Virus record (IMG/VR): IMGVR_UViG_3300032053_000670
Coordinates: 1-20,395 of that record
Source: a virus
Reading direction: 5' to 3' (one strand)
Length of the DNA stretch: 20,395 nt
Made by a program: the position numbers and the translations under genes. Below the pieces are notes generated by a model, which made no database searches, was not told the origin of the DNA, and saw nothing but the letters and a program-made list of their open reading frames with translations. Positions 1,619 through 19,033 of this stretch are shown here, piece by piece (positions within the stretch are counted from its first letter, which is position 1; the number at the start of each line of letters is the position of its first letter).

Positions 1619-1856
1619 CTCTTTCCTCCAAAGCTTTCAAGTCTCTCTTCATAAGATTTTGAATATACAGAAAAACTGTTCTCTGTCCTTCATTATAAGA
1701 CATATCATAAGGAAGAGAGGAGAAAGTAGTCTTATCCTGAAAAGAATATTTCTTTGTCAAGTCAGCAAGTACCTTCTGTCCATGCTCAGAAGCAAAAGTT
1801 CTGATATAAGCTTGTTGAAGGTCCTTGAGTTCTTGGAGATTACTCTGTTCACCCAT
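1608..1856 (-). CDS. Bbp19-like small phage protein
   Basis: An 82-aa protein encoded between portal and scaffold. It has the pattern of the Bbp19-like family: a helical N-terminus with LKDLQQAYIRTF, then HGQKVLADLTKKYSF, and a C-terminal YNEGQRTVFLYIQNLMKRDL helix with the conserved EGxR. Members sit in podovirus head operons near the portal, but no activity is established. The ATG overlaps the portal stop by one base. No membrane segment or cysteine motif is present. It is likely a structural or assembly accessory protein. Confidence 0.6.
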   Translation of the reverse strand: MGEQSNLQELKDLQQAYIRTFASEHGQKVLADLTKKYSFQDKTTFSSLPYDMSYNEGQRTVFLYIQNLMKRDLKALEERDAS

Positions 1857-3490
1857 TACTTACCTCCTTCAGTAGGTCTGTTTGCATCTTTCATAGTCTT
1901 AAGTGCTTGAGCTCCAGTATTTGCAGCTTGTGCTCCCTGCATCATCATAGCCATTTGTAATTGACCCTTCTGCATCTCAGCTCTTGCTTCTCTTATCTTC
2001 TTAACTTCATTACTATCAAGAATCAAGTCAGGAGCTACTCCATATAAGTCAGCAATATCATCAACTAACTTATCTCCATCAATCTTATCAAGGACTGTAG
2101 GAATACCTTGAGCTATTCCACTGATAACTGTTATAGCATTTGAAATAGACTTCATCTCTTCTAGTCTTTGAGCTCTGGCCAAAGGTGAAGTATACTCAAT
2201 CACATAACCTTTATTAGATAGGTCTCCAGGAGGAGGTGGAATGATTCCTTTTCTCAGAAGAATAGAGAATGAACGTCCGATGATTGGGTCTAAGAGTTCT
2301 GACATAAGTCTACCAAGAGTAGGAGCCAGTATTAACATCTTCTCTTCTACTCTCTGCATTACTTCAGTAGCAGTCATATTCTTCTGGTCAGCCAGGACTA
2401 AGAATAAATCAACGAAGAAATTCCGTTTGATTATATCTCTCCTTACATTTTCCATTTCCATACCAACTGGAACATTACCATGAGTCACTAGAGGTTCTAC
2501 TTTCTCAATATTACCTAAAGCAGAATTGAGTTTGAAGTTCAAAGCTGCAGGCCCTAACTTTATAGGTAATAGATAACCATCATGAGGAAGCATTAGCGGG
2601 GGGTCCACAATCTTCTGCGCTGCACGTATGATAGTATAGCTCATTTGATTTAACATTTTAATGTCAGCATAACTAACCATTGCAGGGGAAGTACCGTAGA
2701 CCTCTCCACTATTCTTATTGAATCTAGGTACGAAGAATGGGAACTCTTGATAGCCAGATTCACTAATCTTGTGTTTCTGAGTTATTTCCCAGTAAGTTGA
2801 ACTCCAGGGCATATTCTTCGAATTCTTCTTCTGAGGATTATAAACATATCTAGGTTCAACTACATGAACAAAATCTATCTTCTTATCATAATCTTTAGCT
2901 TCAATAGCTTTTGATACTAACTGTCCAGCTTTATCTCCCCACCTATTCCAAGCTTGAATAGCGGTCATCATAAACTTCCGATAAATAGTATCAACTCTTT
3001 CTCTATCATCTTCAGCAATGAATATTTCACCAATAGGTCTACAATAGAATCTAAGAATATCTTTTTCATCTTCCTCTTCATAAAGACAAGAAGTACCGAA
3101 TACACTCAAATCCAGATATACTTCATGTATCTGTTGTGGGAAGTTAGAACCATTGAGTATAGAATAAATCTTATTCTCAGCAACTACTAACCATTCCTTG
3201 ACTGCTTTTGATTGCATTAACTCTGTATCTTGAAGTCTGAGTGAGAACCACTTAGAAGCAGGATTAGTAAGATATGAATGTAATCCAGCAGCCAAGACTA
3301 GAGCAGATTGCATTGCTGTAGAATCATAGACATCAGCATCGAACTTCTCACCAGGAGTTCTAGTTCTTGTGACATAAGCTTTACGTGGAAGACAATAGTG
3401 AGCTACATCTTGCCAGGTGTTAGATACATTGCTTCGGTCAGTCTGCAGACTCTCCAGTCTCTTTAATGTTCTTTCACCTTGAGTTGACAT
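1856..3490 (-). CDS. Portal protein (head-to-tail connector)
   Basis: A 544-aa protein of the head-tail connector family found in T7-like and related podoviruses. It should form the dodecameric ring at one capsid vertex through which DNA is packaged and ejected. Recognisable segments include LQTDRSNVSNTWQDVAHYCLPRK-type sequence at the N-terminus (residues about 14-36), DSTAMQSALVLAAGLHSYLTNP (about 55-76), a wing region with SGYQEFPFFVPRFNKNSGEVYGTSPAM, and a C-terminal domain with KNMTATEVMQRVEEKM and LGRLMSELLDPIIGRSF. The tail is Gln/Ala/Met-rich (about 505-530), as in many portals. Length fits the family. It lies 2 bases after the 100-aa gene and is coupled to the Bbp19-like gene downstream. 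Confidence 0.9.
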   Translation of the reverse strand: MSTQGERTLKRLESLQTDRSNVSNTWQDVAHYCLPRKAYVTRTRTPGEKFDADVYDSTAMQSALVLAAGLHSYLTNPASKWFSLRLQDTELMQSKAVKEWLVVAENKIYSILNGSNFPQQIHEVYLDLSVFGTSCLYEEEDEKDILRFYCRPIGEIFIAEDDRERVDTIYRKFMMTAIQAWNRWGDKAGQLVSKAIEAKDYDKKIDFVHVVEPRYVYNPQKKNSKNMPWSSTYWEITQKHKISESGYQEFPFFVPRFNKNSGEVYGTSPAMVSYADIKMLNQMSYTIIRAAQKIVDPPLMLPHDGYLLPIKLGPAALNFKLNSALGNIEKVEPLVTHGNVPVGMEMENVRRDIIKRNFFVDLFLVLADQKNMTATEVMQRVEEKMLILAPTLGRLMSELLDPIIGRSFSILLRKGIIPPPPGDLSNKGYVIEYTSPLARAQRLEEMKSISNAITVISGIAQGIPTVLDKIDGDKLVDDIADLYGVAPDLILDSNEVKKIREARAEMQKGQLQMAMMMQGAQAANTGAQALKTMKDANRPTEGGK

Positions 3491-6696: not shown

Positions 6697-6977
6697 ATTA
6701 ACTCCTTCTCATTCATCTCGATGATAGGATTTCTAACAACTGATTTCTACCTGTAGCCGTAAGATTCATCTTTTACTATAATGGTCAGGTACACTGTCGG
6801 GGGTATCTCTAATGGCCCCCATCCCTTATTCAATCTATTCATATCTTCTCTTAGTATATTCATTTGCTATTTCCTTATCTTCTAAACAGATAGAACATTA
6901 GTATGAAGTAGATGATTCCTATTACTATTAGTATAAGCTCTTCCTATACACATACTTCTTCCCTTCTTTCAATTATC

Positions 6978-7007
6978 AATATACCATAAAGAATAGCCAT
7001 TTGTAAA
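6978..7007 (-). promoter_or_regulatory. Leftward promoter-like site for the head operon
   Basis: On the minus strand TTTACA (7007-7002), an 18-base spacer and TATATT (6983-6978) preceded by TGG form a sigma70-type site with an extended -10. It would start transcription about 270 bases before terS. Two direct CATTTGT copies 12 bases apart (6998-7004, 7010-7016) overlap the -35 area and might be a regulator site. The -35 matches the other putative phage promoters here. Confidence 0.5.
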
Positions 7008-7260
7008 CACATTTGTTTATTGTATATCAAATGAGATTCATAAGTCTAACAAATAGTATATGACTGGAAATAGTATATCGAGGATGAATAGTTTATAGTG
7101 AAATAGATTAGAGATAATGACCTGCTTTGCTAAGATAATATCTGTGATTGATATATAATTGAATAGAAAAAGCTTTTATAGAGATGAGTAGGAAGCTAGA
7201 ACCTAGGACATTATCGTCGCAATCAGTATATGAAGTAGGTATAGTCATCGAGATAGATAT

Positions 7261-7323
7261 CTGTAATAGTATTCTGTAATAGTATTCTGTAATAGTATTC
7301 TGTAATAGTATTCTGTAATAGTA
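7261..7323. repeat. 13-bp tandem repeat array, five copies
   Basis: CTGTAATAGTATT is repeated four times without change, followed by an 11-base partial copy that then diverges. Perfect identity suggests recent expansion or selection. No frame stays open through it. It could be origin iterons or protein-binding sites. Confidence 0.9.
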
Positions 7324-7336
7324 AAAGCATTGAGAT

Positions 7337-7410
7337 ACAATAGAAGAATAGAATAGAAGAAGAATAGAATAGAAGAAGAATACAATAGAAGAAGAATACC
7401 ATAGAAGAAT
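7337..7410. repeat. 16-bp purine-rich tandem repeat array, five copies
   Basis: Five units of the form A(S)(M)ATAGAAGAAGAAT: three full 16-base copies flanked by two 13-base copies lacking one GAA. One strand is almost all purine apart from T at fixed places. AGAAGA-rich sequence continues to about 7500. Stops occur in every frame, so it is noncoding. Confidence 0.85.
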
Positions 7411-7607
7411 TAGTATTAGTTATTGTAATTAGAAGAAGACATTATCTTAATTGAATAAGAAGAAGTAGAAGAGGTAGACATAGAAGAAGACATATATAGG
7501 TAATATAGAAATAGAATAAGAATAGAATTAGTTATATCAATAAGACATATTCAATTGTAATAGCTATTTCTAATACTATTTCTAATTCTAATAGATTATA
7601 CTGTACT

Positions 7608-7650
7608 ACTGCTCTAGCTTTTACTGCTTTAGCTTTTACTGCTCTAGTAG
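7608..7650. repeat. 15-bp tandem repeat array, about three copies
   Basis: Units ACTGCTCTAGCTTTT, ACTGCTTTAGCTTTT and a final ACTGCTCTAGTAG. The single C/T change lies in the centre. The array ends just before an AT-rich segment with TATATT and TATAGT, about 115 bases upstream of the rightward promoter, so it could be an operator or iteron set. Confidence 0.85.
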
Positions 7651-7762
7651 ACCATTATATTTTAAGTATATAGTATATAGGGCCGAAGATTATATCAAAA
7701 CAATAAGAAGTTAATTATTTCAATAGGATAAAAGGTGACAGATGAAATAGTCAAAATAATCA

Positions 7763-7790
7763 TTTACAAATATACTATTCGTGATATACT
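7763..7790 (+). promoter_or_regulatory. Rightward early promoter
   Basis: TTTACA (7763-7768), a 16-base spacer and TATACT (7785-7790) with TGA directly before it make a good sigma70-type extended -10 promoter. It lies 40 bases upstream of the first early gene, whose ribosome binding site is AAAGGAGGT. The -10 neighbourhood is nearly the same as that of the site at 10435-10462. Confidence 0.7.
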
Positions 7791-7830
7791 AATAATTGTA
7801 ATACAACTTAAATAAGAAAGGAGGTAAAAG

Positions 7831-7980
7831 ATGACAAAAGCCGAAAAGAAATACATCATCAAAGTAATAGCAGAGGTAATTTTAGAAGAGGGAATAAACA
7901 AATACAATAATCCATTTTCTAAATTACAAGGCAAAGAGAAAGAAATCAAAAGTTATTTAGAAGACTTAGTTACTAATTAA
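7831..7980 (+). CDS. Small early protein, 49 aa, unknown
   Basis: The first early gene. It has a textbook AAAGGAGGT ribosome binding site 6 bases before ATG and a good promoter just upstream. The product, MTKAEKKYIIKVIAEVILEE followed by a short linker and EKEIKSYLEDLVTN, is predicted to be two helices and is charged. I do not recognise it. Early first-in-operon genes of phages are often host-takeover proteins, but nothing in the sequence shows that. Confidence 0.7.
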   Translation: MTKAEKKYIIKVIAEVILEEGINKYNNPFSKLQGKEKEIKSYLEDLVTN

Positions 7981-7999: not shown

Positions 8000-8431
8000 A
8001 TGAACAGCCACAAGAAATATACTCACACACTACATAATGATTCAAAAGAAACTCTGGTTCAGATTGATAAGAAGTTATTCAAGCTAGTAGAAATAAAAGA
8101 AACACTTGATGATATCAAAAAGCTACCTTTCAATAAGACTCCCCATGTAAGGCTCCTCAATCCAATCCAAGAAAGAACTCCACAAGAACAAATGATGAAG
8201 AGTAAGGTAGATGAATCAATACATCGTTTAGCTTCAACTATTCCTACCACAAGAAGAACTATCAATATACGCCAAGCCGCATTAGCTGGAATTGATTTAC
8301 CTAAGGCTATTGCTGAATTGATGGAGAAGAAAGCTAATGCCAAAACAGACGCAGAAAAAAGGGCAATAAGAAAACAGCTCAGGAGATTAGACTACAAAAG
8401 ATTCTTGAATAACACTGAAGACAAAGAATAA
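8000..8431 (+). CDS. Early protein with a C-terminal IRKQLRRLxY motif
   Basis: A 143-aa basic protein with an AAAGGAG ribosome binding site. The N-terminal 50 residues are helical and charged (KLFKLVEIKETLDDIKKL). The middle has a Thr/Arg-rich linker (STIPTTRRTINIRQAALAG). The C-terminal 30 residues, KTDAEKRAIRKQLRRLDYKRFL, match the ending of three further small proteins encoded at 8461, 9053 and 9375. I know no function. It may be nucleic-acid binding given the Arg/Lys-rich helix, as inference. It lies 19 bases after the 49-aa gene and 29 before the next, so all are likely co-transcribed. Confidence 0.7.
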   Translation: MNSHKKYTHTLHNDSKETLVQIDKKLFKLVEIKETLDDIKKLPFNKTPHVRLLNPIQERTPQEQMMKSKVDESIHRLASTIPTTRRTINIRQAALAGIDLPKAIAELMEKKANAKTDAEKRAIRKQLRRLDYKRFLNNTEDKE

Positions 8432-8460
8432 ACTAATTAAAGAAGAAAGGAGAAATACAA

Positions 8461-8640
8461 ATGAAGAAACCTACTATCAAATCTAAGGCCAAGAAAGAAA
8501 TCAGCAAGAGTGAGAAGGTAAAGGAATTACTTAAGGACTATAACACACTGCCTAAGCATAATAACAGTAAAGCAAGACAGCTAAGGAGGAAACTACGACG
8601 TCTAGGTTATTACTTATCTAAACATCAGGGAGGTAAATAA
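8461..8640 (+). CDS. Small basic early protein with an LRRKLRRLGYYLS motif
   Basis: A 59-aa, very basic protein behind an AAAGGAG site 8 bases upstream. The N-terminus is Lys-rich (MKKPTIKSKAKKEISKSEK), followed by a helix VKELLKDYNTLPKHNNSKA and the shared motif ARQLRRKLRRLGYYLSKHQGG. It is one of four early-region proteins with this ending. The final HxGGK resembles the HHGGLH end of the 9053-9337 product. Function unknown. Confidence 0.7.
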   Translation: MKKPTIKSKAKKEISKSEKVKELLKDYNTLPKHNNSKARQLRRKLRRLGYYLSKHQGGK

Positions 8641-8642
8641 TA

Positions 8643-8939
8643 ATGAAGCTACCTCGTCCTAAAGAAATAAAGAAGATATTCTATTCACCTCGAATGGATG
8701 ATAAGGATTTAGAAGCATTACTCGAGTTCGGAATATCTTATTCACTTAACACACGAATCAGAGAGATATCAGATGTAGACCAAGACAAATTCTTCAATCA
8801 AGCGTTGAAACTAATGAGGAAGAAGAATTATTGTTCAGGGAAGATATTCTACATCATCAGACGGAAGATGAATCGATTCAAATTTGGATTTGAGAGCAGT
8901 AGAATATGCCGGACAGTAAAGAAAGGAGGAAAACGTTGA
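8643..8939 (+). CDS. Early protein, 98 aa, unknown
   Basis: An unrecognised basic protein with a GGGAGGT ribosome binding site and only 2 bases between it and the preceding gene. It has a helical acidic centre (RMDDKDLEALLEFGIS) and a basic C-terminal half (FNQALKLMRKKNYCSGKIFYIIRRKMNRF). No membrane segment or metal motif is seen. An AAAGGAGG site lies in its last codons, before a TTG that overlaps its stop (TTGA). Confidence 0.6.
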   Translation: MKLPRPKEIKKIFYSPRMDDKDLEALLEFGISYSLNTRIREISDVDQDKFFNQALKLMRKKNYCSGKIFYIIRRKMNRFKFGFESSRICRTVKKGGKR

Positions 8940-8974
8940 AAGGCATATCAGGGATGGACGAGGATGTATTTTCA

Positions 8975-9003
8975 TTTACAAGTAACAGGAAAAGTCATAA
9001 AAT
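8975..9003 (+). promoter_or_regulatory. Possible internal rightward promoter
   Basis: TTTACA (8975-8980), 17-base spacer, TAAAAT (8998-9003). It lies in the 113 bases between two early genes and would give a leader of about 40 bases to the ATG at 9053. It lacks the TGN extension of the two other rightward sites, so it is weaker evidence. Confidence 0.4.
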
Positions 9004-9052
9004 GATAATTGAACCTAACAACAGAAACATTAAAGAAGGAAGGAGTAACAAA

Positions 9053-9337
9053 ATGAAACAGAAGAAGAAAGTAACAACCGCACCAGCAGTGAAGGAGACA
9101 AAGAAAACGGAAGTCAGGGTTAAGACCACAACTACGAGATTCATCGATGTAGAGTTATTAAGGAAGATAGCTAAAGGAGATCCGAAAGTATCACAGTTCC
9201 TTCACACACTTGATGAACTACATCACAAGTACAGAGGGAAGCAGCATGACAAAGAAGCAATGAGTATAAGAAGGAAGTTAAGACGTAAGGGAGTATATCT
9301 TTCACACCTTGGACATCACGGTGGACTCCATGACTAA
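9053..9337 (+). CDS. Basic early protein with an IRRKLRRKGVYLS motif
   Basis: A 94-aa protein with a Lys/Thr-rich N-terminus (MKQKKKVTTAPAVKETKKTE), a central helical part (FIDVELLRKIAKGDPKVSQF) and the shared C-terminal motif MSIRRKLRRKGVYLSHLGHHGG. I chose the ATG at 9053 because AAGGAG lies 7 bases upstream and the sequence before it looks noncoding and contains a promoter-like site. The frame is open further upstream, and a TTG at 8936 with a strong AAAGGAGG site would give 133 aa, so the start is uncertain. Member of the four-protein early family; function unknown. Confidence 0.65.
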   Translation: MKQKKKVTTAPAVKETKKTEVRVKTTTTRFIDVELLRKIAKGDPKVSQFLHTLDELHHKYRGKQHDKEAMSIRRKLRRKGVYLSHLGHHGGLHD

Positions 9338-9374
9338 CAGTAACATAATCTCAAAAGGAAAGGAGGTGAATCAA

Positions 9375-9602
9375 ATGGCCAAAGCAATTCAAGAGTTAAT
9401 CAAGCAGCTGGAGAAAATCAAAGACCGTAGTTCTTCTGAAGCCAGAACTATCAGAAAGAAACTAAGGGCTGAAGGTTATTCTCTGAGGAAGAAGTCAGAT
9501 GTAAAGAAGGATGACGAATCTACCAAGAAGTCGAAGAAGTCAAAAAAGGTAGATGAGGATAGCGACGATGAGGACGATGACAAAGACGAGGATGAGGATT
9601 AA
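9375..9602 (+). CDS. Small early protein: IRKKLR motif plus SSB-like acidic tail
   Basis: A 75-aa protein starting at the ATG 5 bases after GGAGGTGA. The N-terminal half, MAKAIQELIKQLEKIKDRSS followed by EARTIRKKLRAEGYSLRKKS, carries the motif of the early family. The C-terminal half is a Lys/Ser linker STKKSKKSKKV followed by about 17 residues that are nearly all Asp/Glu. The same linker and acidic ending occur in the phage SSB (16941-17753: KKSKKSKV then Asp/Glu repeats). In SSBs such tails recruit partner proteins or mimic DNA, so this protein may compete for the same partners. That role is inference. Confidence 0.7.
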   Translation: MAKAIQELIKQLEKIKDRSSSEARTIRKKLRAEGYSLRKKSDVKKDDESTKKSKKSKKVDEDSDDEDDDKDEDED

Positions 9603-10434: not shown

Positions 10435-10462
10435 TTTACAGGATTATTCCTTGTGATATAAT
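10435..10462 (+). promoter_or_regulatory. Rightward promoter of the replication module
   Basis: TTTACA (10435-10440), 16-base spacer, TATAAT (10457-10462) with TGA directly before it. This is close to consensus and shares the TNGTGATATAnT surroundings with the early promoter at 7763-7790. It lies in the 84-base gap before the PC4-like gene, so the replication genes can be transcribed separately from the early block. Confidence 0.75.
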
Positions 10463-10496: not shown

Positions 10497-10823
10497 ATGT
10501 CTAGCTTCTATGAGAAGGTCATATTTGAATATCCTCAGCTTAAGAAATGGAAGAGTTGGAATAAAGACTCATTCTACAAAATCAGGGTAATCGAGAAGAA
10601 ATGCCATGACGGTATTGTAAGAAGATTTATCGATATCAGAGAGTTTATAGTCAAAGATGAATTCTCTGCTCTCACTGAAAGTAGTGTATGTCTAAGCAAA
10701 ATCAATCTAGATATTTTAATAGATACCTTAATTAAAGCAAGAAAGGAATACTTTGATGGAGCAGGGGACAGAAGTCGAAGCCAGAATCTTAGCAGTTCTC
10801 AGAAGGAAAAGAAACTATCATAA
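10497..10823 (+). CDS. PC4-like (p15 coactivator family) ssDNA-binding protein
   Basis: A 108-aa protein whose middle follows the PC4 pattern: an N-terminal YKIRVIEKKCHDGIVRRF, then FIDIREFIVKDEFSAL (residues 44-59), then TESSVCLSKINLDILIDTLIKA (60-81). In PC4 proteins a xVDIREY strand, a loop with a Pro/Thr-rich turn, a GISL-type strand and a long helix form a dimer that binds melted DNA. Homologues exist in some phages. The match is by pattern only. As the first gene behind its own promoter, next to helicase and primase, it may act in origin opening, replication or late transcription. The last 23 residues are a basic/Ser tail overlapping the helicase start by 68 bases. Confidence 0.5.
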   Translation: MSSFYEKVIFEYPQLKKWKSWNKDSFYKIRVIEKKCHDGIVRRFIDIREFIVKDEFSALTESSVCLSKINLDILIDTLIKARKEYFDGAGDRSRSQNLSSSQKEKKLS

Positions 10824-12063
10824 GTATCGCTCTATCTTACAACCGTCTTTCTTTCAATTAGAAACAACTAGACAAATCTTTTCTTTGGTTGATGAGTTCT
10901 TCTCGACAACGACGACTAAGAAAAAGAAGTTAACTACTGCGAACTTAAGACTGATTATACATCAGAAGATAAGAAATGTAGATTTAAGAAATGAATGCTT
11001 AGAATTTCTAAAGAAGATAAGACCTTATCCTACTAAAGACAATGAAGTAATCGATGAATCAATAAAAGACTTTGCTAAAAGACAATTTGCTAAACGAGCG
11101 GTATTAGAATGCTTAGAATTATTAGAAGGACCTAACCCCGACTTTACTTCAGTTCAAGACCATTTAGAAAAAGCAATAACTATCTCTACAAGTTTTGAGA
11201 AAGAATGCTATTCTTATTTTGACCAAGCAGAAGAAAGAACTATACTTGATGTTCAAGATAAAAGTATTCCTTCGGGTATTCCTAGATTAGATGAGATATT
11301 AGGTGGAGGTACTGGTCAGGGTGAACTAATAGTATTCTTAGCTCCACCTGAAAGAGGTAAGACTTTGGCATTAGTTAATTTTGGTACAGCAGCATTACAT
11401 CTAGGATTAAGAATAGGATATATCAGTTTAGAATTAGCAGAAAGAAAGATAGCTCGTCGTTTTGATTTAAGAATAACCGGTAGGACTTATGAATTACTTA
11501 AGAAAGAACCAGATAGAATCAAGAATCCATTAGCAGCTCTAAGGAAGAACGGATGTGAATTAGTTATCAAAGACTACAGTGCTTCAGACCCAAGATTAGA
11601 AGATATTAAATCCTTTGTAGTTAATTATCAGAATAAGATGAGAAGGAAGTTCGATATGTTAATTGTAGACTATGCTGATTTGATCTCTCCAACTAAAATG
11701 CATAAGACAGAAAGATTTGGTATCAAAGAAGTATATACTAATCTTAGACGCTTTGCTAACGAACTGAAGATTCCTATAATAACAGCGTCACAAGCTAATA
11801 GAAAATCAGTAGGTAAGTTAGTAGTAACTATGGAGGATTTTGCTGAAGACTTTGCCAAAGCTGCAGTAGCTGATGTAGTAATAGCTATATGTCAGACTCC
11901 TGAAGAATTGGAAGATGATTTATGTAGATTATATGTAGCTAAAAATAGAAGAACAGGAAGACATGGTCTAGTAAGATTGACTATGCAACCTAAAGTAATG
12001 TATCTAGGTGAGATGAGAAAAGTAAGTGATGTAAACAGAAAGTCTATAGCAGACAGGATATAA
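10756..12063 (+). CDS. dnaB: Replicative DNA helicase (DnaB/RecA fold)
   Basis: A 435-aa hexameric helicase. The N-terminal ~150 residues are helical, as in DnaB N-domains (EARILAVLRRKRNYHKYRSI). The ATPase domain starts with SIPSGIPRLDEILGGGTGQGEL (170-191), followed by Walker A APPERGKT (196-203), YISLEL with the catalytic Glu (222-227), and Walker B MLIVDYADLI (301-310). Downstream ITASQANRKS (342-351) and AKNRRTGRHG are the H3/arginine-finger regions of DnaB. Length is typical. I use ATG 10756, 8 bases after AAGGA, rather than the adjacent TTG at 10753. It works with the primase encoded one base downstream. Confidence 0.9.
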   Translation: MEQGTEVEARILAVLRRKRNYHKYRSILQPSFFQLETTRQIFSLVDEFFSTTTTKKKKLTTANLRLIIHQKIRNVDLRNECLEFLKKIRPYPTKDNEVIDESIKDFAKRQFAKRAVLECLELLEGPNPDFTSVQDHLEKAITISTSFEKECYSYFDQAEERTILDVQDKSIPSGIPRLDEILGGGTGQGELIVFLAPPERGKTLALVNFGTAALHLGLRIGYISLELAERKIARRFDLRITGRTYELLKKEPDRIKNPLAALRKNGCELVIKDYSASDPRLEDIKSFVVNYQNKMRRKFDMLIVDYADLISPTKMHKTERFGIKEVYTNLRRFANELKIPIITASQANRKSVGKLVVTMEDFAEDFAKAAVADVVIAICQTPEELEDDLCRLYVAKNRRTGRHGLVRLTMQPKVMYLGEMRKVSDVNRKSIADRI

Positions 12064-12064
12064 T

Positions 12065-12874
12065 ATGAATCTATCACAATTAGGTGAACCGTTAAGAAAG
12101 AAAGGTAAATATCAGGTATTCTTTTCCTGCCCCTGCCATGACGATGAATCAGGTCATTTAGGTGTTCATATCAAGAAAGGAATATACCATTGCTTCAAAT
12201 GTGGTACTTCAGGTAGAATTAAGAATTTAGAAATATCACTTTCAGAATTTGAGACAATTGTTCAAGAAAAGCTAAGACCAGACCAGGGAAGAACCGACCT
12301 TCTTTCTAAGGCTAGTCCCCCGTTAGAACTCCCCCGGGAGTATAAGTTGGTATCTTTACAGTCTGGTCTACCTTTCAGATATCTGAATAAGAGATTAGTA
12401 ACTACTGAAGAGCTACTACAGTATCATATAGGCTATTGTAGTACTGGTATATTTCAAGAGCGTATTATAGTACCTATCTATGAACAGCATAAGCTAGTAT
12501 ACTTTGTAGGTAGAACATATACTGGTAGAGAGCCTAAGTATATGAATGCTCCAGTAGAGAAAGGTCACATAGTATTCAAGACTTTCAATGATAGAGTAGA
12601 AGAAGCAATAGTATGTGAAGGTATATTTGATGCTCTTAGAATAGGTAAAGTAATACCTGCTATTAGTCTATTAGGTAAAGTAGCTAGTAAGTATCAGATA
12701 CAGACTATTAGACAACTAACTAATAGTGCAATAGTAATGTTAGACAGTGATGCTAATGTAGAAGCATTTAAGCTATACTCATTACTTAGAATGTATATGC
12801 CCACTAGGATACTAATGATAGATAAACACGACCCAGGTAGTATGACAATAGAACAGTTAAAGGAGGTGATATGA
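12065..12874 (+). CDS. DNA primase (CHC2 zinc finger + Toprim)
   Basis: A 269-aa DnaG-type primase that should make RNA primers for lagging-strand synthesis. The zinc finger is C22-x2-H25 ... C43-x2-C46 (CPCHDDESG, YHCFKCG). The Toprim domain shows AIVCEGIFDAL (E185, D189) and AIVMLDSDA (D227, D229), with a further acidic DKHDPGS (253-259). Between them, FQERIIVPIYEQHKLVYFVGR and PKYMNAP are typical primase core strands. It is shorter than bacterial DnaG (about 600 aa) and lacks the helicase-interacting C-domain, which is usual for phage primases. It follows the helicase by one base, and its stop overlaps the next ATG. Confidence 0.88.
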   Translation: MNLSQLGEPLRKKGKYQVFFSCPCHDDESGHLGVHIKKGIYHCFKCGTSGRIKNLEISLSEFETIVQEKLRPDQGRTDLLSKASPPLELPREYKLVSLQSGLPFRYLNKRLVTTEELLQYHIGYCSTGIFQERIIVPIYEQHKLVYFVGRTYTGREPKYMNAPVEKGHIVFKTFNDRVEEAIVCEGIFDALRIGKVIPAISLLGKVASKYQIQTIRQLTNSAIVMLDSDANVEAFKLYSLLRMYMPTRILMIDKHDPGSMTIEQLKEVI

Positions 12875-13194
12875 TGAACTATCTACTAGTCATAGCTATA
12901 GTAAATGCTATCTTCTTAGCAGAAGGTAGTAATAGAACACAGTATCTATATGGTATAAAGAGTGTACCATACTATTCTAAGGCTGAAGCTAAACAGATAT
13001 GTATCAATACAGTACAGAATAACTATTCTAGATGGATAGTATCTGGTCAGAAAGAAGACTATTTAATATTTCTTTCAAAAAGATATTGTCCAACTGATTC
13101 AGAGACCTGGTATAGAAATGTCAATTACTTATTAAGAAAGGAATTCAAAGATGAGAATCTACTCAAAACTATCAGAGGCAGTAAAAGAAACTGA
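12871..13194 (+). CDS. Small protein with hydrophobic N-terminus and AEG...YGI motif
   Basis: A 107-aa protein preceded by AGGAGGTGAT, a near-perfect match to the anti-Shine-Dalgarno, with ATG at 12871 or 12874. Residues 4-17 are a hydrophobic helix (LLVIAIVNAIFLAEG). Then come TQYLYGIKSVPY, KQICINTVQNNYSRW and FLSKRYCP...WYRNVNYLL. I recall phage proteins with this AEG..YGI..IC.NTI.NN..RW..RYCP..W.RNV pattern. The early Glu resembles lysozyme/transglycosylase-like folds, but no activity is shown here. The hydrophobic helix could be a signal peptide or the first helix of the domain. Its place inside a replication operon is odd for a cell-wall enzyme. Confidence 0.45.
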   Translation: MMNYLLVIAIVNAIFLAEGSNRTQYLYGIKSVPYYSKAEAKQICINTVQNNYSRWIVSGQKEDYLIFLSKRYCPTDSETWYRNVNYLLRKEFKDENLLKTIRGSKRN

Positions 13195-13849
13195 AAGAGA
13201 ATTGATTGAGATGGGCACAAGAGTTATTGTGCAATCTATGCAAGATAAAGAAGGAATCTTTGATACTATAGAATTGCAAGGTTATGGATATATCATAACA
13301 AATCATGCAGGTATTGAAGAAGACTTCATTAAGCTAGGAGGAAATGTAGAATATCTTAGACAAGAATTACAGGAAAGGGTATCACCTTTATGGTATAATC
13401 CAGGACAAGCTTGGTCTATCAGAGAAGATACCTGGAGTCAATTCTTAGAACCTAGTGGTAAGTTTGCTTATACCTATAATGAAAGATTTAGAGAACAGCT
13501 GATGCCTTTACTCAAAGAACTAAATGATAAACCTTCTACTCGTCAAGCTATCCTCTCTATGTATGACAGACATCAGGATATGAATAATTGGGGAGGGAAG
13601 AGAAGAATACCATGTTCTATGTATTATCAATTCTTACGTAGAATAAGAAATGGTATAGAAGTACTAGACATAATCTACACAATGAGGTCATGTGATATAT
13701 ACAATCATTACCTATATGATGTAGTTCTAGCTATGAAGTTACAAGAATATGTAGCTAATGCTCTAGGTATTGAGCCAGGACATTTCACACATTTCATAGG
13801 AAGTCTACATGCATATAAGAAAGATGCTGATAAGAAAGGGGTATTCTAA
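13151..13849 (+). CDS. Thymidylate synthase-family enzyme, possibly dCMP (hydroxy)methylase
   Basis: A 232-aa pyrimidine C5-methylating enzyme. The nucleophile is in RRIPCSMYYQF (C155). The phosphate/pyrimidine-binding signature is RSCDIYNHYLYD (R179-D190). The C-terminal part IEPGHFTHFIGSLHAY carries H220/Y222, equivalent to the HLY of bacterial ThyA. Aligned without gaps to E. coli ThyA RSCDVFLGLPFN, position 190 is Asp where dUMP-specific enzymes have Asn177. Asp here is known from T4 dCMP hydroxymethylase (Asp179) and favours dCMP. The length is also below ThyA (264 aa) and nearer T4 gp42 (246 aa). So the substrate may be dCMP, giving hydroxymethyl- or methyl-dCMP. Family certain, substrate inferred. 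The gene overlaps the preceding one by 44 bases. Confidence 0.8.
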   Translation: MRIYSKLSEAVKETERELIEMGTRVIVQSMQDKEGIFDTIELQGYGYIITNHAGIEEDFIKLGGNVEYLRQELQERVSPLWYNPGQAWSIREDTWSQFLEPSGKFAYTYNERFREQLMPLLKELNDKPSTRQAILSMYDRHQDMNNWGGKRRIPCSMYYQFLRRIRNGIEVLDIIYTMRSCDIYNHYLYDVVLAMKLQEYVANALGIEPGHFTHFIGSLHAYKKDADKKGVF

Positions 13850-14445
13850 TGAATCAGTTAACTAAAGAACAATTTGCTTCATTGATAGCTTTCAATTCTC
13901 TAATCAATAAGTTCAAGTTGAATAGAGATGTAAAGATAACTCTGTTACAGATAGATGAATGGTATCAACTAGGTATAACTCAGTATGAAGCTATCAATAG
14001 TACAGTAGCAGTAGGAGAAGTACCTAAGAGACTATCTAGAGATGAATACTTTATCAGGATAGCTCAAGTAGTAGCTGAAAGAAGTACATGTAGTAGAGCT
14101 AAAGTAGGAGCAGTATTAGTTGACCCTAGGACTAATAGAATAGTAGCTACTGGTTATAATGGGTCTATCAAAGGTAGTCCTCACTGTATAGATGTAGGTT
14201 GTATGATGGTAGAAGACCATTGCAGAAGAACAATACATGCTGAGATGAATGCAGTATTGCACTTAGAACATAACTATGATATACTATACTTGTATTCTAC
14301 TCATGAGCCATGTGCTGAATGCTTCAAAGCATTGAAGACAGCTAATGTAGTAAAGATGACTTATATCAATAGGTATAAAGATGATGTTAGAGATTTGATT
14401 AGAAAGGAACTAGAGGATGAATCTAGAAAGACTAAGAAAACCTGA
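13849..14445 (+). CDS. Deoxycytidylate (dCMP) deaminase
   Basis: A 198-aa zinc enzyme converting dCMP to dUMP. The active site is H130-A-E132 (TIHAEMNAV) with C155/C158 (HEPCAECFKAL). The substrate region VGAVLVDPRTNRIVATGYNGS and the CIDVGCM...C insert (113-125) are typical of phage and T4-type dCMP deaminases. About 62 residues precede the catalytic domain (MNQLTKEQFASLIAFNSLIN...), helical and without a recognised motif; such an extension is unusual. Its ATG overlaps the previous stop by one base (TAATG). In context it supplies dUMP for dTTP or trims dCMP pools beside the TS-family enzyme. Confidence 0.88.
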   Translation: MNQLTKEQFASLIAFNSLINKFKLNRDVKITLLQIDEWYQLGITQYEAINSTVAVGEVPKRLSRDEYFIRIAQVVAERSTCSRAKVGAVLVDPRTNRIVATGYNGSIKGSPHCIDVGCMMVEDHCRRTIHAEMNAVLHLEHNYDILYLYSTHEPCAECFKALKTANVVKMTYINRYKDDVRDLIRKELEDESRKTKKT

Positions 14446-16756
14446 TTGTAAAGAATGTGAACTTCATTCTACTGCACAAGCGGTATGTCTGATAGGTGAT
14501 GGACCGGTACCTTGTGACATAATGATTGTAGGTGAAGCTCCTTCATTCAGGAAAGAAGATATCTATAAACCTTTTGCTGGTAAAGCAGGAAAGGTATTAG
14601 ATGTAATCTTAGGTGAATTAGGATTAGACAGAAGTAAAGTGTATATGACTAATGTAGTTCATTGTAGACCACCTGAGAATAGAACTCCTAAGATGGAAGA
14701 GATAAGAAAATGTAGAGAATATCTCTTGAAAGAAATCAAGTATGTAAAACCTAAAGTAATCTTTGCTATGGGTAACATAGCTATCAAGGGATTGTTTGAT
14801 TCTAATCTATTATCAATCTCTAAAGAAAGAGGGAAGATACTTGACTTCAATGGTATTAAAGTGATACCTACTTATCATCCTGCAGCTACATTATACCAGA
14901 AGTATTATGCGAACATCCTATATGAGGACTTGAGAGTAGGTCTAGAAAGAATAAAAGGAAAGGATTTAGAACAGAAAGACAGAGGAGATTATAAGCTAGT
15001 AACTAAATCTATGAGAGATGATGTTTATAATATCTTATATGATAGTCCTAAATTAGCAGTAGACTTAGAAACTACAGGACTAGACTTCATGGATAAAAAG
15101 TTAGAGATAGTAACAGTGAATATGTCAATAAAACCTTATGAATCTTTTGTCTGGGATATAGCTGATTATGAATATATAAAAGATATCATTCTACATAAGA
15201 AATTACTCATCAATCACGTTATCAAATTTGACTTAGAATGGCTTCATAGATATAAGATTAGACCTAAGTGTAGGATATTTGATACTATGGTAGCTAAACA
15301 TATACTTGATGAGAACTATCCAGATAAAGAACTTAAGCATTTAGCTAGAGTAGAATTAGGTATGTTTGATTTAAGTGAAGCTAATAATATAATGGTCAAG
15401 CATAGAAAAGAAAACACTAGACCTACTATGGAAGAATATGTAAGGTATGGAGGTGGAGATACTGATGCAGTCATGCGATTATACTATAGGTATAAGAAAC
15501 AACTTAAAGAAGAAGGTCTGTATGATTTATTCAAGACTGAAATGAAAGTTCTCAGAACATTGACCAACATGGAAACATGGGGATTCAAGATAGATTTAGA
15601 TGTTCACAAAAGACTATGTAAAGAATACAAGAGAGATATAGAATCTAGTGAGCATATAATCAAAAGAATGGTAGGTGATATAAATCTTAATAGTCCAAAA
15701 CAATTAGCTGTACTATTATATAGTAAGATGAATTTACCTATATTAAAGACAACTGAATCTGGAGCACCTAGCTGTGATGAAGCTACTGTAAAAGAATTAG
15801 TATATCAAGCTAAGAAAGAAGAACAGAAAGAATTTCTAGAAGCTTTATTGAATTATAGAAAGTTAAATAAGCTATACAATACTTATCTTATAGGATTAAC
15901 TAATAACAATCTTCTTAAATCAGATGGAAGAATACATTGTGACTTTAAGATATGTGGTACAAAGACAGGTAGGTTATCTTGTTCAGATCCTAATCTTGAG
16001 AATATACCTAGAGATGGAGACATTAAGAAGATGTTCATCTCTTCATTTGATAAAGGTCAATTGATACAAGTAGATTATTCTCAAATGGAATTAAGGATAC
16101 TATCTCACTATGCTAATGATAAGAATCTAATTAGAGCATTCAAAGAAGGTAGAGATATACATAAGGAGACTACTGCTAAATGTCTTCATAAACCTTATGA
16201 TGAAGTAACTGAAGAAGAAAGGAAGGTGATAGGTAAGAGAGTTAATTTTGGAATAGTCTACATGATAGGAGCACAAGGATTATCAGAAAGAATAGGTTGT
16301 AGTGTATCTCAAGCTAAGATGTATATACTCAATTGGTTCGAAGAGTTCCATAAAGTAAAGGAGTGGATGAATGAAAGACGTGAAGAGATTATTGAAACCG
16401 GGAAGAGTATATCTTTTAATGGACGTATCCGACGACTATATGGTGCGAATACTGAAACAGGAGAAGGGAGGGAAGCTATTAGACAAGGAGTTAATAGTCC
16501 TATCCAGGGAGGAGCAGGCGATATTACTAAATACAATATGTTCCGCTTGGATAAAAGACTTCGTAAAGATGCTAAGGAAGCACATGTCGTAAATAATGTT
16601 CATGATGCTGTAGTAGTTGATTGCCCAAGAGAGGAGGTAAAAGAAGTAATAGCTATTATCAAAGAGTTATTTGTTCAACCCCCAGTACCTCTGTTAGTAG
16701 ACCTAGACTTTGAAATAAAGGTAGGTCCTAACTGGAAAGAGATGAAGGAGATTTAA
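14417..16756 (+). CDS. polA: Uracil-DNA glycosylase (family 4-like) fused to DNA polymerase I
   Basis: A 779-aa fusion. Residues 1-185 match family 4 UDG: four Fe-S cysteines C11, C14, C83 and C99, VGEAPSFRKED (38-48), TNVVHCRPPENRTP (78-91) and YHPAA (153-157). Residues about 190-360 are a 3'-5' exonuclease with VDLETTG (D216, E218), NHVIKFDLEW and YGGGDTDA. The family A polymerase domain has motif A VDYSQMELR (D553), motif B around K607-NFGIVY (F611, Y615), SPIQGGAGDI and motif C VHDAVVVD (D730). The arginine four residues before the motif B lysine appears to be Lys603. All catalytic acidic residues are present, so replication with proofreading is expected. UDG-PolA fusions occur in some other phages. 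It overlaps the deaminase by 29 bases. Confidence 0.92.
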   Translation: MNLERLRKPDCKECELHSTAQAVCLIGDGPVPCDIMIVGEAPSFRKEDIYKPFAGKAGKVLDVILGELGLDRSKVYMTNVVHCRPPENRTPKMEEIRKCREYLLKEIKYVKPKVIFAMGNIAIKGLFDSNLLSISKERGKILDFNGIKVIPTYHPAATLYQKYYANILYEDLRVGLERIKGKDLEQKDRGDYKLVTKSMRDDVYNILYDSPKLAVDLETTGLDFMDKKLEIVTVNMSIKPYESFVWDIADYEYIKDIILHKKLLINHVIKFDLEWLHRYKIRPKCRIFDTMVAKHILDENYPDKELKHLARVELGMFDLSEANNIMVKHRKENTRPTMEEYVRYGGGDTDAVMRLYYRYKKQLKEEGLYDLFKTEMKVLRTLTNMETWGFKIDLDVHKRLCKEYKRDIESSEHIIKRMVGDINLNSPKQLAVLLYSKMNLPILKTTESGAPSCDEATVKELVYQAKKEEQKEFLEALLNYRKLNKLYNTYLIGLTNNNLLKSDGRIHCDFKICGTKTGRLSCSDPNLENIPRDGDIKKMFISSFDKGQLIQVDYSQMELRILSHYANDKNLIRAFKEGRDIHKETTAKCLHKPYDEVTEEERKVIGKRVNFGIVYMIGAQGLSERIGCSVSQAKMYILNWFEEFHKVKEWMNERREEIIETGKSISFNGRIRRLYGANTETGEGREAIRQGVNSPIQGGAGDITKYNMFRLDKRLRKDAKEAHVVNNVHDAVVVDCPREEVKEVIAIIKELFVQPPVPLLVDLDFEIKVGPNWKEMKEI

Positions 16757-16757
16757 T

Positions 16758-16928
16758 ATGGCTAAAGAAAGTAAAGTAGAGATGACAGGTTATTGTGTAA
16801 AATGCAAAAAGAAACAGAAGATGGAGAACTGGCATGAAGACAAGCTGGCTAATAAGATGATGGCAGCTAAAGGTCAATGTATCAAGTGTGGCACAAAGAT
16901 GTGCAAGATACTCGGTAAAGCAAAATAA
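16758..16928 (+). CDS. DUF5679-like zinc-ribbon protein
   Basis: A 56-aa protein with two CxxC knuckles: GYCVKCKKKQKM (C13, C16) and GQCIKCGTKMCKI (C41, C44). This is the pattern of DUF5679, small zinc ribbons common in phages and archaea, usually of the form YCVKCK...KG.CP.CGTKM. The ribosome binding site is AAGGAG, 7 bases upstream. It sits between polymerase and SSB. No function is known; a role as a replication or transcription accessory is possible. The extra Cys49 is not part of the usual motif. Confidence 0.75.
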   Translation: MAKESKVEMTGYCVKCKKKQKMENWHEDKLANKMMAAKGQCIKCGTKMCKILGKAK

Positions 16929-16940
16929 AGGAGGATGTAA

Positions 16941-17753
16941 ATGAGTAAGCATGATAAAGAGAAGAAGAAATACTATCAAGCTGATAATGAAGCTATCATG
17001 AAGAAGCTTGATGAGTTAGGTTCTGGTACTTTCTTCAAGGCTAAAGAAGGAAAGAATCAGGTTAGGATTCTACCTCCCTGGTCAAAGAAGGGAGTATGGT
17101 TCAAAGAGGCTACTCTGCATTATGGAGTAGCTGACAAGAAGGCATATCCTTGCTTGAAGATGTTCGGTAAGGAATGTCCTATCTGTAATAAAGCTGAAGA
17201 GTTACAAGAGGGAAGTGATGAGGATAGGAAGATTGCTGGAAGGCTGAAGCCCAAGACTAAGTATTATGTCAATATCGTAGACCGTAAAAGTGGTAAGGTT
17301 AAGATATGGGGCTTCTCAGCTAAGATACTTGGTACTCTCTTGAGTTATGTAGGAGACCCAGATTATGGTGATATCACAGACCCTGAGGAAGGGTATGATG
17401 TAGTGATAGACCGTACTGGTTCAGGCATGACTGATACTAAGTATGAAGTAAGATGTAGACCTAAACCTTCTGAGATTGATTCTGAAAACTGGGAGAATGA
17501 AATGCACAACCTGGATACAGAAGTAATCGATGAAGTAAATGAAAGTGAAATAGAGTCAGTAGTAGAAGAGAAATTTGGTGAGACTCTTCCTAAGAAATCT
17601 AAGAAGTCTAAAGTCGATGAAGACGAAGAAGATGACGAGGATGATGAAGAGGAAGAGGATAAACCTAGGAAAAAGGGAAAGAAACACAAGAAAGACGAAG
17701 ACGATGATAAGGAGGATGATGATGATGACGAAGATGATGAGGACAAAGATTAA
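16941..17753 (+). CDS. Single-stranded DNA-binding protein (gp32-like)
   Basis: A 270-aa SSB of the T4 gp32-like type. The core has FFKAKEGKNQVRILPPW (31-47), a putative zinc site H60-x10-C71-x7-C79-x2-C82 (LHYGVADKKAYPCLKMFGKE...CPIC) similar in order to T4 gp32, then KYYVNIVDRKSGKVKIWGFS (OB-fold strands) and YDVVIDRTGSGMTDTKYEV. From about residue 205 the protein becomes a low-complexity tail of Lys/Ser patches (KKSKKSKV, KKGKKHKKD) and long Asp/Glu runs. Such acidic tails regulate binding and recruit helicase, primase or nuclease. The GAT/GAC/GAG-rich tail codons also contain the ribosome binding site and start of the next gene. Confidence 0.85.
   Translation: MSKHDKEKKKYYQADNEAIMKKLDELGSGTFFKAKEGKNQVRILPPWSKKGVWFKEATLHYGVADKKAYPCLKMFGKECPICNKAEELQEGSDEDRKIAGRLKPKTKYYVNIVDRKSGKVKIWGFSAKILGTLLSYVGDPDYGDITDPEEGYDVVIDRTGSGMTDTKYEVRCRPKPSEIDSENWENEMHNLDTEVIDEVNESEIESVVEEKFGETLPKKSKKSKVDEDEEDDEDDEEEEDKPRKKGKKHKKDEDDDKEDDDDDEDDEDKD
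17711..17715 (+). promoter_or_regulatory. Ribosome binding site inside the SSB acidic-tail codons
   Basis: AAGGAGG within the SSB reading frame is followed by four in-phase ATG triplets (17716-17727). Those at 17722 and 17725 have 6- and 9-base spacing and open the nuclease frame. This site decides the start of the nuclease gene and couples its translation to SSB. Confidence 0.6.
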
Positions 17754-18621
17754 GTCTGATTCATCTAGGTATATACCTGATAGTGAGGTCCTGTATCTGA
17801 GGACCTCACTACTCAAGGCTTACCTTAGATGTCCAGCTCAATGCTTCTTTAGGTATTTCAAAGGTCTTGTAATTCTACCCAGAAGTTATTTAATGATGGG
17901 TTCATGTTTTCACAAGACAGTTGAACATCACTATAAATACAAGAAGCAGAAGGGGAAGAATGAAAAGCTTTCTACTCTTCAAGATATATTCCACGAAGAG
18001 TTCAAAGCAAGTAGACCTAGGACTCAATGGTTAAAGTCTGAGAAGCCTGATGACTTTGATACTGAGGGTACTAAGTTAATTGTACCTACTTATTACAAAG
18101 AAAGAGCAGTTAAGCTTGAGCCTAAATATGTAGAGGAAGGATTCAAGTTATTCATACCAGAGGTTAATGCTTATGTTACTGGTACTCTAGACTTGATACT
18201 CACTGATGATTCTATCAGGGACCATAAGACTAGAAGCAGAAGACCTAACTGGATGGATGCTATGAAATCTTTCCAAGGATTAAGTTATACTGCAGGTCAT
18301 GTAGAGAAGTTCGGAGAATTCCCTAAAGACTTTAAGCTTGATTATATTCTCAGAGGTAAACATTCAACTGAGATAGAATTAAGTAAGCCAGTGAAACATA
18401 CTAAGTCCGATATTGAAGGATTTAAGATATTGGTAGCCAGAGTAGTAAGGTCAATGAGAAGAGGAGAGTTCTATCCTCATTGTGAAGGTAACTTCTTATG
18501 CTCTCCGAACATGTGTGGATTCTGGTATATCTGTCAGAAGAAAGGACAATGGAAAGACTTAGGAGTATTCACTCAAGTATTTGGAAAGAACTCAGGTGAA
18601 GAAGAAAAGGGAGAAGAATAA
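17722..18621 (+). CDS. RecB/Cas4-like PD-(D/E)XK nuclease with Fe-S cysteines
   Basis: A 299-aa nuclease. Motifs in order are LRTSLLKAYLRCPAQCFFRY (27-46), MGSCFHKTVEHH with H64, VTGTLDLIL (D157), IRDHKT (D167-x-K169) and QGLSYTAGH (Q185, Y189). This is the classic H...D...D-x-K...QxxxY order. Cys37/Cys41 near the N-terminus and C260-x4-C265-x5-C271 near the C-terminus fit the iron-sulphur cluster of AddB/Cas4-type exonucleases. The frame is open upstream to 17575, but that part is only the shifted SSB tail. The likely substrate is DNA ends during replication or recombination. A stand-alone phage exonuclease is more likely than a CRISPR Cas4, since no array or Cas1/2 is present. Confidence 0.8.
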   Translation: MMTKMMRTKIKSDSSRYIPDSEVLYLRTSLLKAYLRCPAQCFFRYFKGLVILPRSYLMMGSCFHKTVEHHYKYKKQKGKNEKLSTLQDIFHEEFKASRPRTQWLKSEKPDDFDTEGTKLIVPTYYKERAVKLEPKYVEEGFKLFIPEVNAYVTGTLDLILTDDSIRDHKTRSRRPNWMDAMKSFQGLSYTAGHVEKFGEFPKDFKLDYILRGKHSTEIELSKPVKHTKSDIEGFKILVARVVRSMRRGEFYPHCEGNFLCSPNMCGFWYICQKKGQWKDLGVFTQVFGKNSGEEEKGEE

Positions 18622-18622
18622 T

Positions 18623-19033
18623 ATGAATATAAAAGACATCGAGAAAGTAGAGGTGACAGGTGATAAACTCGAAGCAATCTTTAGAAAGCAACGGGAGCTT
18701 GAAGAGAGGTATAATAGCATCGAGCGTTCTAATGGTGCTCTTGTGGTACCTACTCCCATTGACTATAATACTTTTCTTGGTCAAGAGCGTATCAGACTAC
18801 TTATTTACAGAGTGGCTGAAGAACTCTTTGAAGCGGGTAATTGTTTACGAAATAAAGCCTGGAAGCAATCTCAAGTTCCGATGGATATGGACCACTTTCT
18901 TGAAGAACTTAGCGATTCAGTCCATTTTCTTATTCAACTATATATCGAGCTTGGTCTGGGTCCCGATGAATTTGCTTCTCTCTACTTCAGAAAAGCTAGG
19001 GTTAATACCTTCAGACAAGATACAAAATACTGA
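18623..19033 (+). CDS. Dimeric dUTPase-like (all-alpha NTP pyrophosphatase) enzyme
   Basis: A 136-aa helical protein. The metal-binding pattern is VAEELFEAGNCL (E66, E67, E70, N73), LEELSDSVHFLIQL (E95, D98, H101) and a C-terminal YFRKARVNTFRQDTKY, which matches the K..VN.FRQ...Y ending of dimeric dUTPases (dUTPase_2) within the MazG/all-alpha fold. It should hydrolyse dUTP to dUMP and pyrophosphate. T4 dCTPase (gp56) belongs to the same superfamily, so dCTP is also possible. It starts one base after the nuclease stop with GGGAG upstream. Together with the deaminase and TS-family genes it controls the pyrimidine pool. The shorter frame start (ATG 18623) is preferred over one 14 codons upstream within the nuclease. 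Confidence 0.75.
   Translation: MNIKDIEKVEVTGDKLEAIFRKQRELEERYNSIERSNGALVVPTPIDYNTFLGQERIRLLIYRVAEELFEAGNCLRNKAWKQSQVPMDMDHFLEELSDSVHFLIQLYIELGLGPDEFASLYFRKARVNTFRQDTKY

What the first reader, a model, noticed from the sequence alone, without database searches (positions are those of the whole stretch)
10497..10823. PC4-like protein heads the replication operon
The VRRFIDIREF...LTESSVCLSKINLDILIDTLIKA pattern fits the PC4/p15 ssDNA-binding fold, better known as a eukaryotic transcription coactivator. Here it is first behind a near-consensus promoter and overlaps the helicase gene, which hints at a role in origin melting or as helicase loader, since no loader is visible.
Basis: partly seen in the sequence, partly recalled or inferred. 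Interest (0 to 1): 0.5.

Follow-up and report, generated by a model that had tools for sequence, protein, structure and literature searches.

The report
Orphan phage protein, doubtfully PC4-like
A small phage gene of unknown ancestry sits behind a good promoter and overlaps the start of the phage's DNA helicase gene; its resemblance to the DNA-binding protein PC4 is suggestive but unproven, and nothing points to it being a helicase loader.

Summary
ORF 10497-10823 (108 aa) has the coding bias of a real gene, lies behind the best promoter match of its region (TTTACA-16-TATAAT) and overlaps the DnaB-like helicase gene by 68 bp. It is an orphan: no Pfam or PHROG family, and no relative in 50,697 phage records or in the motif-seeded contig scans. 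The PC4 reading is suggestive, not established. PF02229 gives 9.2 bits (cut-off 25; genuine phage PC4s give 37-41). Profile-profile comparison beats 993 of 1000 size-matched phage ORFs. AlphaFold alone fails (pLDDT 51). With nine real PC4 rows added it gives a beta-beta-beta-alpha fold (pLDDT 85, Z 6.5 to human PC4), but those rows steer the model, and COMMD and Pur-alpha chains score alike. If it is PC4-like, the DNA-binding face is largely gone: one of seven recorded contact residues is kept, the TKKG turn reads TESS, and both stacking aromatics are lost. The phage encodes a separate SSB, and the possible origin region lies about 3 kb away. Origin melting and helicase loading have no support. 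A real PC4 does head a replication gene run in another virus (L084), so that arrangement exists. Low to moderate interest.

The parts
10435..10462 (+). sigma-70-type promoter-like site TTTACA-N16-TATAAT with TG before the second hexamer
   Evidence: 11 of 12 matches; 1 observed against a mean of 0.17 in resampled 3 kb; 3 of 300 resampled 100-bp upstream stretches have one as good
10497..10823 (+). the orphan 108-aa protein gene
   Evidence: codon bias; no family; no relative
10566..10766 (+). 67-residue core (residues 24-90) that can be aligned with PC4 domains
   Evidence: hhalign (residues 42-81); guided AlphaFold model pLDDT 84.8; fold searches
10756..12063 (+). DnaB-like replicative helicase, overlapping the orphan gene by 68 bp
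   Evidence: PF03796 5.9e-20, phrog_19 1.7e-65, alignment
12065..12874 (+). DnaG-type primase, 269 aa
   Evidence: phrog_47 5.1e-43; PF08275, PF01807
14417..16756 (+). uracil-DNA glycosylase / 3'-5' exonuclease / family A DNA polymerase fusion
   Evidence: PF03167, PF01612, PF00476
16941..17753 (+). the phage's own single-strand binding protein, with acidic C-terminal tail
   Evidence: phrog_1192 3.2e-39

Best explanation
A real, apparently fast-evolving phage gene whose protein is probably a diverged beta-beta-beta-alpha domain of PC4 type (inferred, weakly supported). It is made just ahead of the helicase from the same message; the overlap and the helicase's internal ribosome site suggest translational coupling (inferred from sequence). 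Because the stacking aromatics and the lysine turn of PC4 are missing in the alignment, it more likely acts as a small dimeric accessory protein near the helicase-primase, through protein contacts or weak nucleic-acid contacts, than as a PC4-type ssDNA binder. Shown here: gene, promoter-like site, overlap, orphan status. Inferred: fold, dimer, partner.
For: Codon bias, promoter and overlap. PF02229's best six-frame match in the whole window falls in this ORF, E 0.027. hhalign against a PC4 profile: 2 of 400 and 7 of 1000 phage ORFs of similar length score as high, 0 of 200 shuffles, best of 45 window ORFs, aligned across strand-strand-helix in the PC4 register. Guided AlphaFold pLDDT 84.8, Z 6.8 to 5a4n (rmsd 1.6 A, 55 aligned), 6.5 to 1pcf (2.9 A, 59 aligned), 5.2 to phage T5 4bg7 (3.9 A, 62 aligned). 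A genuine PC4 gene leads a PC4-SSB-RecA-exonuclease-helicase run in L084.
Against: 9.2 bits against a cut-off of 25 and no PF02229 hit in the whole-protein scan. With HMMER the window protein (4.8 bits) does not stand out from other ORFs, and the match is only RRFIDIREFIVKDE. Unguided AlphaFold pLDDT 50.8, helical, no PC4 fold. The guided model contains nine PC4 rows, so its fold is not independent; a COMMD chain ties for first (Z 6.8) and Foldseek ranks a COMMD chain first. Two phage ORFs of one family (L014, L015) outscore it against the PC4 profile without any other sign of being PC4.
Confidence: 0.42

Rival explanations
1. An orphan early phage protein with an unrelated fold; the FIDIREF stretch is a chance match. 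It may act on the host or modulate replication.
For: No relative or family anywhere searched. Single-sequence AlphaFold is helical and poor.
Against: The aligned register spans strand, strand and helix in the right order, and the protein scores best of the 45 window ORFs.
Confidence: 0.4
2. A helicase loader for the DnaB-like helicase.
For: Position directly upstream with overlapping reading frames; no known loader family among the window proteins scanned.
Against: Among 96 related helicase loci the upstream gene is mostly a 5'-3' exonuclease (53 by my motif count) and never this protein. Not every phage helicase needs a dedicated loader (recalled). No family match to a loader. Another unknown ORF (12871-13194) is an equal candidate.
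Confidence: 0.08
3. A genuine PC4-type ssDNA-binding protein acting in recombination-dependent replication, as proposed for phage T5.
For: PC4-like register; R48 is kept and K35, R42 and R43 are basic in the modelled strands; T5 and L084 precedents.
Against: F77 and W89 equivalents are K34 and I51; R70, K97, R100 and K101 equivalents are Y27, A58, E61 and S62 (read from the alignment). Alanine at F77 or W89 abolishes ssDNA binding in PC4 (PMC4350104 passages). The phage has its own SSB. The hairpin part of the alignment is uncertain.
Confidence: 0.1

Closest known systems
Phage T5 PC4 homologue (PDB 4bg7; T5-type proteins hit phrog_4053)
   Same: Small phage protein with a beta-sheet plus helix fold if the guided model is right (Z 5.2); reported as implicated in recombination-dependent replication (title seen in a reference list)
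   Different: Genuine phage PC4s score 37-41 bits with PF02229; the window protein 9.2. It lacks the EW.PTK.G turn and has a longer first hairpin.
Bacterial and eukaryotic PC4 (1pcf, 5a4n BPSL1147, YdbC)
   Same: IDIRE strand and following strand-helix order
   Different: One of seven DNA-contact residues retained; no significant sequence match
Viral PC4 of L084 (IMGVR_UViG_3300032073_003759)
   Same: PC4 (39.8 bits) upstream of a DnaB-like helicase of the same family on the same strand
   Different: Three genes lie between; canonical TKKG turn; not overlapping the helicase
AcrIIA22, PC4-like nickase
   Same: Small phage-associated protein of the PC4-like class (PMC8545432 passages)
   Different: Anti-Cas9 role, no C-terminal helix; no sequence comparison made here

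Membership tests
PC4 / p15 (PF02229) | Score above the curated cut-off (25 bits) | tested here: not met
   9.2 bits over 12 positions; no PF02229 row at E<=1 in hmmscan; positive controls 37-41 bits
PC4 / p15 (PF02229) | Antiparallel beta-sheet followed by one helix | tested here: inconclusive
   Unguided model pLDDT 50.8; model guided by nine PC4 rows pLDDT 84.8, Z 6.5-6.8 to PC4 chains, tied with COMMD chains
PC4 / p15 (PF02229) | DNA-contact residues R70, F77, R86, W89, K97, R100, K101 (human numbering) | tested here: not met
   Alignments: Y27, K34, R48, I51, A58, E61, S62; only R86 kept. Residue roles from PMC4350104 passages. Alignment of the first hairpin is uncertain.
PC4 / p15 (PF02229) | ssDNA binding as a homodimer | not testable with these tools
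   needs purified protein
PC4 phage family phrog_4053 | PHROG profile match | tested here: not met
   No PHROG at E<=1 for the window protein; controls L173, L175, L181 and L084 hit phrog_4053
Replicative helicase loader | Match to a known loader family (DnaC-like ATPase, T4 gp59, lambda P, SPP1 gp39; names recalled) | tested here: not met
   No Pfam or PHROG match of any such family
Replicative helicase loader | Binds the helicase and loads it on DNA | not testable with these tools
   needs interaction and loading assays

The most novel reading that the evidence does not exclude
A PC4-fold protein that has shed its ssDNA-binding face and become a dedicated helicase partner (assembly or loading factor) in a phage replisome, translationally coupled to the helicase.
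Probability: 0.07. Interest if true: 0.55.

Novelty: new variant of a known kind. Interest (0 to 1): 0.2.

Why it matters
PC4-like proteins are already known in phages (T5, AcrIIA22), so a further one would be a modest addition. It would matter more if the fold were confirmed without the DNA-binding face, since that would show a PC4 scaffold reused for protein contacts in a replisome. The L084 gene order shows that a clear PC4 can lead a phage replication run, which is a better place to test a PC4 role in phage replication than this orphan.

Tried and rejected
Relatives of the 108-aa protein: tblastn in 50,697 phage records, E up to 1; viral contigs with single-protein patterns (18 pattern matches, none a relative) and with window+L084 patterns (162, none); genome contigs (129, none); phmmer --max against 27,907 ORFs of 173 records and 7,532 ORFs of 80 loci. 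The pattern scans need nearly exact short peptides, so diverged relatives could be missed. Helicase and polymerase single-query scans found no close relative of the virus.

PF02229 in 100 of the 160 records behind loci L013-L172: 0 of 100 at E<=0.05 (the records behind L063-L092 and L143-L172 were not searched this way). A home-made PC4 profile then found two PC4 proteins in loci of those scans, L084 and L107; L107's record was among the 100 and was missed by the PF02229 genome search, so that search is not fully sensitive.

The FIDIREF-type motif [FY][ILV]D[IV]R[EK][FYW] occurs in 1 of 33,524 unique ORFs, the window one. I wrote the motif with the window in view, so I do not count it as a test.

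Structural libraries: no Foldseek match with E<=0.001 in PDB or BFVD. The AcrIIA22 structure (7JTA) and YdbC do not appear in the listed rows. No inverted repeat at the promoter, so no visible operator for self-regulation. No tRNA or Rfam match.

Alignments A8 and A9 of the window protein with PC4 rows put the first strand in a different register; I used the trimmed-core alignment instead. The choice was mine and favours the PC4 reading.

Full report
What is there. The window is a 20,395-base virus record and may be a fragment. Head and packaging genes (portal-like head-tail adaptor, terminase) run on the minus strand up to about 6.7 kb. An AT-rich stretch of about 26% G+C follows at 7.0-8.0 kb with tandem repeats (13-mer x4.9, 16-mer x4.2). 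Then come plus-strand small ORFs and the replication genes: helicase, primase, a thymidylate-synthase-like protein, dCMP deaminase, a UDG-exonuclease-polymerase fusion, SSB and a PD-(D/E)XK nuclease. The orphan ORF 10497-10823 sits between the small ORFs and the helicase.

Is the observation sound? Yes. The frame has the codon bias of its neighbours. The promoter is 11 of 12 with a TG before the second hexamer, and equally good sites are rare in resampled sequence. The helicase start at 10756 agrees with four aligned phage helicases and has its own ribosome site, so the 68-bp overlap is credible. The bias over the overlap itself is neutral in the orphan's frame (0.000), as expected if the helicase frame constrains it.

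Is it PC4? Three levels of test. (a) Curated families: no PHROG family and no credible Pfam family (the only Pfam row, a RING finger at E 0.17, is noise). PF02229 searched in six frames picks this ORF as the best place in the window, but at E 0.027, 9.2 bits and 12 positions. Known phage PC4s score 37-41 bits under the same search. (b) A PC4 profile built from 21 sequences, later 23 with L084 and L107: HMMER gives 4.8 and 5.6 bits. In the scan of 27,907 ORFs, only L084 and L107 passed the inclusion threshold and the window protein was not listed at E<=20. hhalign gives probability 7.4% and 5.5%. The empirical rank is good: 2 of 400 sampled ORFs (pool 1,068) and 7 of 1,000 (pool 1,424) score as high, none of 200 shuffles, and it is first of 45 window ORFs. 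The aligned segment covers the last strands and the helix in the right register. (c) Structure: alone, AlphaFold gives pLDDT 50.8 and an all-helical model. With nine real PC4 rows under the 67-residue core it gives strands 2-12, 18-30, 33-43 and helix 45-64 with pLDDT 84.8. The closest solved chains by Z are a COMMD chain, 8p0w_H (6.8), and the Burkholderia PC4 5a4n (6.8, rmsd 1.6 A over 55 residues), then human PC4 (6.5), Borrelia Pur-alpha (6.3), MoSub1 (6.1) and T5 (5.2). The tool warns that Z under 8 may mean only a common arrangement, and the input was PC4-steered. The sequence is therefore compatible with the fold; it is not shown to have it.

Does it have the PC4 surface? Seven residues that touch DNA in human PC4 are named in PMC4350104 (passages read): R70, F77, R86, W89, K97, R100, K101. 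Through the alignments the window has Y27, K34, R48, I51, A58, E61, S62. Only R86 is kept; the PTKKG turn, nearly invariant in the aligned family, reads LTESS. The same paper states that alanine at F77 or W89 abolishes ssDNA binding. L084, a clear PC4 by score, also lacks the W89 aromatic, so that loss alone is not decisive. The first hairpin is five residues longer in the window and its alignment is uncertain.

Origin melting or loader? The window has its own SSB (phrog_1192, E 3.2e-39). The repeat-rich AT-rich segment that looks like an origin is about 3 kb upstream of the gene (origin role inferred). In 96 loci with a related helicase, the upstream neighbour was a 5'-3' exonuclease in 53 by my motif count, phrog_14232 in 5, a dUTPase in 5, something else in 26 and not found in 7; the count is by regular expression and several 'other' rows are visibly exonuclease or dUTPase too. 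None resembles the window protein. So the slot is not a conserved loader slot. 'No loader is visible' is true of the proteins I scanned but is weak evidence.

What is known. PC4 orthologues occur in eukaryotes, Lactococcus lactis, Burkholderia pseudomallei and phage T5 (PMC9600219, abstract and passages). [quoted passage not shown] AcrIIA22 is a PC4-like nickase (PMC8545432 abstract and passages). A literature search for helicase loader + bacteriophage + DnaB + PC4 returned no paper. The searched library holds only CC0, CC BY and CC BY-SA papers.

A useful by-product. In L084 a genuine PC4 (PF02229, 39.8 bits) is followed on the same strand by an SSB-like protein, a RecA-like protein, a 5'-3' exonuclease-like protein and the DnaB-like helicase (the SSB, RecA and exonuclease names are my reading of the sequences, the helicase is a phmmer match).

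Verdict. Real gene, orphan, PC4-like fold possible (about even), PC4-type ssDNA binding unlikely, loader or origin role unsupported. Interest 0.2.

Noticed in passing
   Followed up: partly
window 8000-9602 (+): Several consecutive small ORFs (8000-8431, 8461-8640, 8906-9337, 9309-9602) share a C-terminal motif like S-x-x-A-R-x-I-R-R-K-L-R-R-x-G-Y-x-L-S; no clear family found.
   Followed up: no
window 6900-7900: AT-rich divergent region (about 26% G+C) with tandem 13-mers (7260-7323) and 16-mers (7342-7409) where GC skew changes sign; candidate origin and regulatory region.
   Followed up: no
window 13151-19033: Thymidylate-synthase-like protein, dCMP deaminase, uracil-DNA glycosylase fused to exonuclease and family A polymerase, and a dUTPase_2/NTP-pyrophosphohydrolase: a uracil-metabolism set that may go with modified pyrimidines in the phage DNA.
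   Followed up: no
window 1856-3490 (-): The head-tail adaptor is about 43-47% identical to those of HTVC010P-type Pelagibacter phages, but helicase, primase, SSB and polymerase relatives were not found in 80 loci around related portal genes: structural and replication halves may have different histories.
   Followed up: partly
L107 1221-1466: A second PC4-like viral protein (phrog_13183, unknown function; PF02229 17.9 bits, below cut-off); phrog_13183 could perhaps be annotated as PC4-like.
   Followed up: no
L013-L017, directly upstream of the helicase: A 259-aa protein of phrog_14232 (unknown function) precedes the helicase in five loci; a candidate helicase partner.
   Followed up: no
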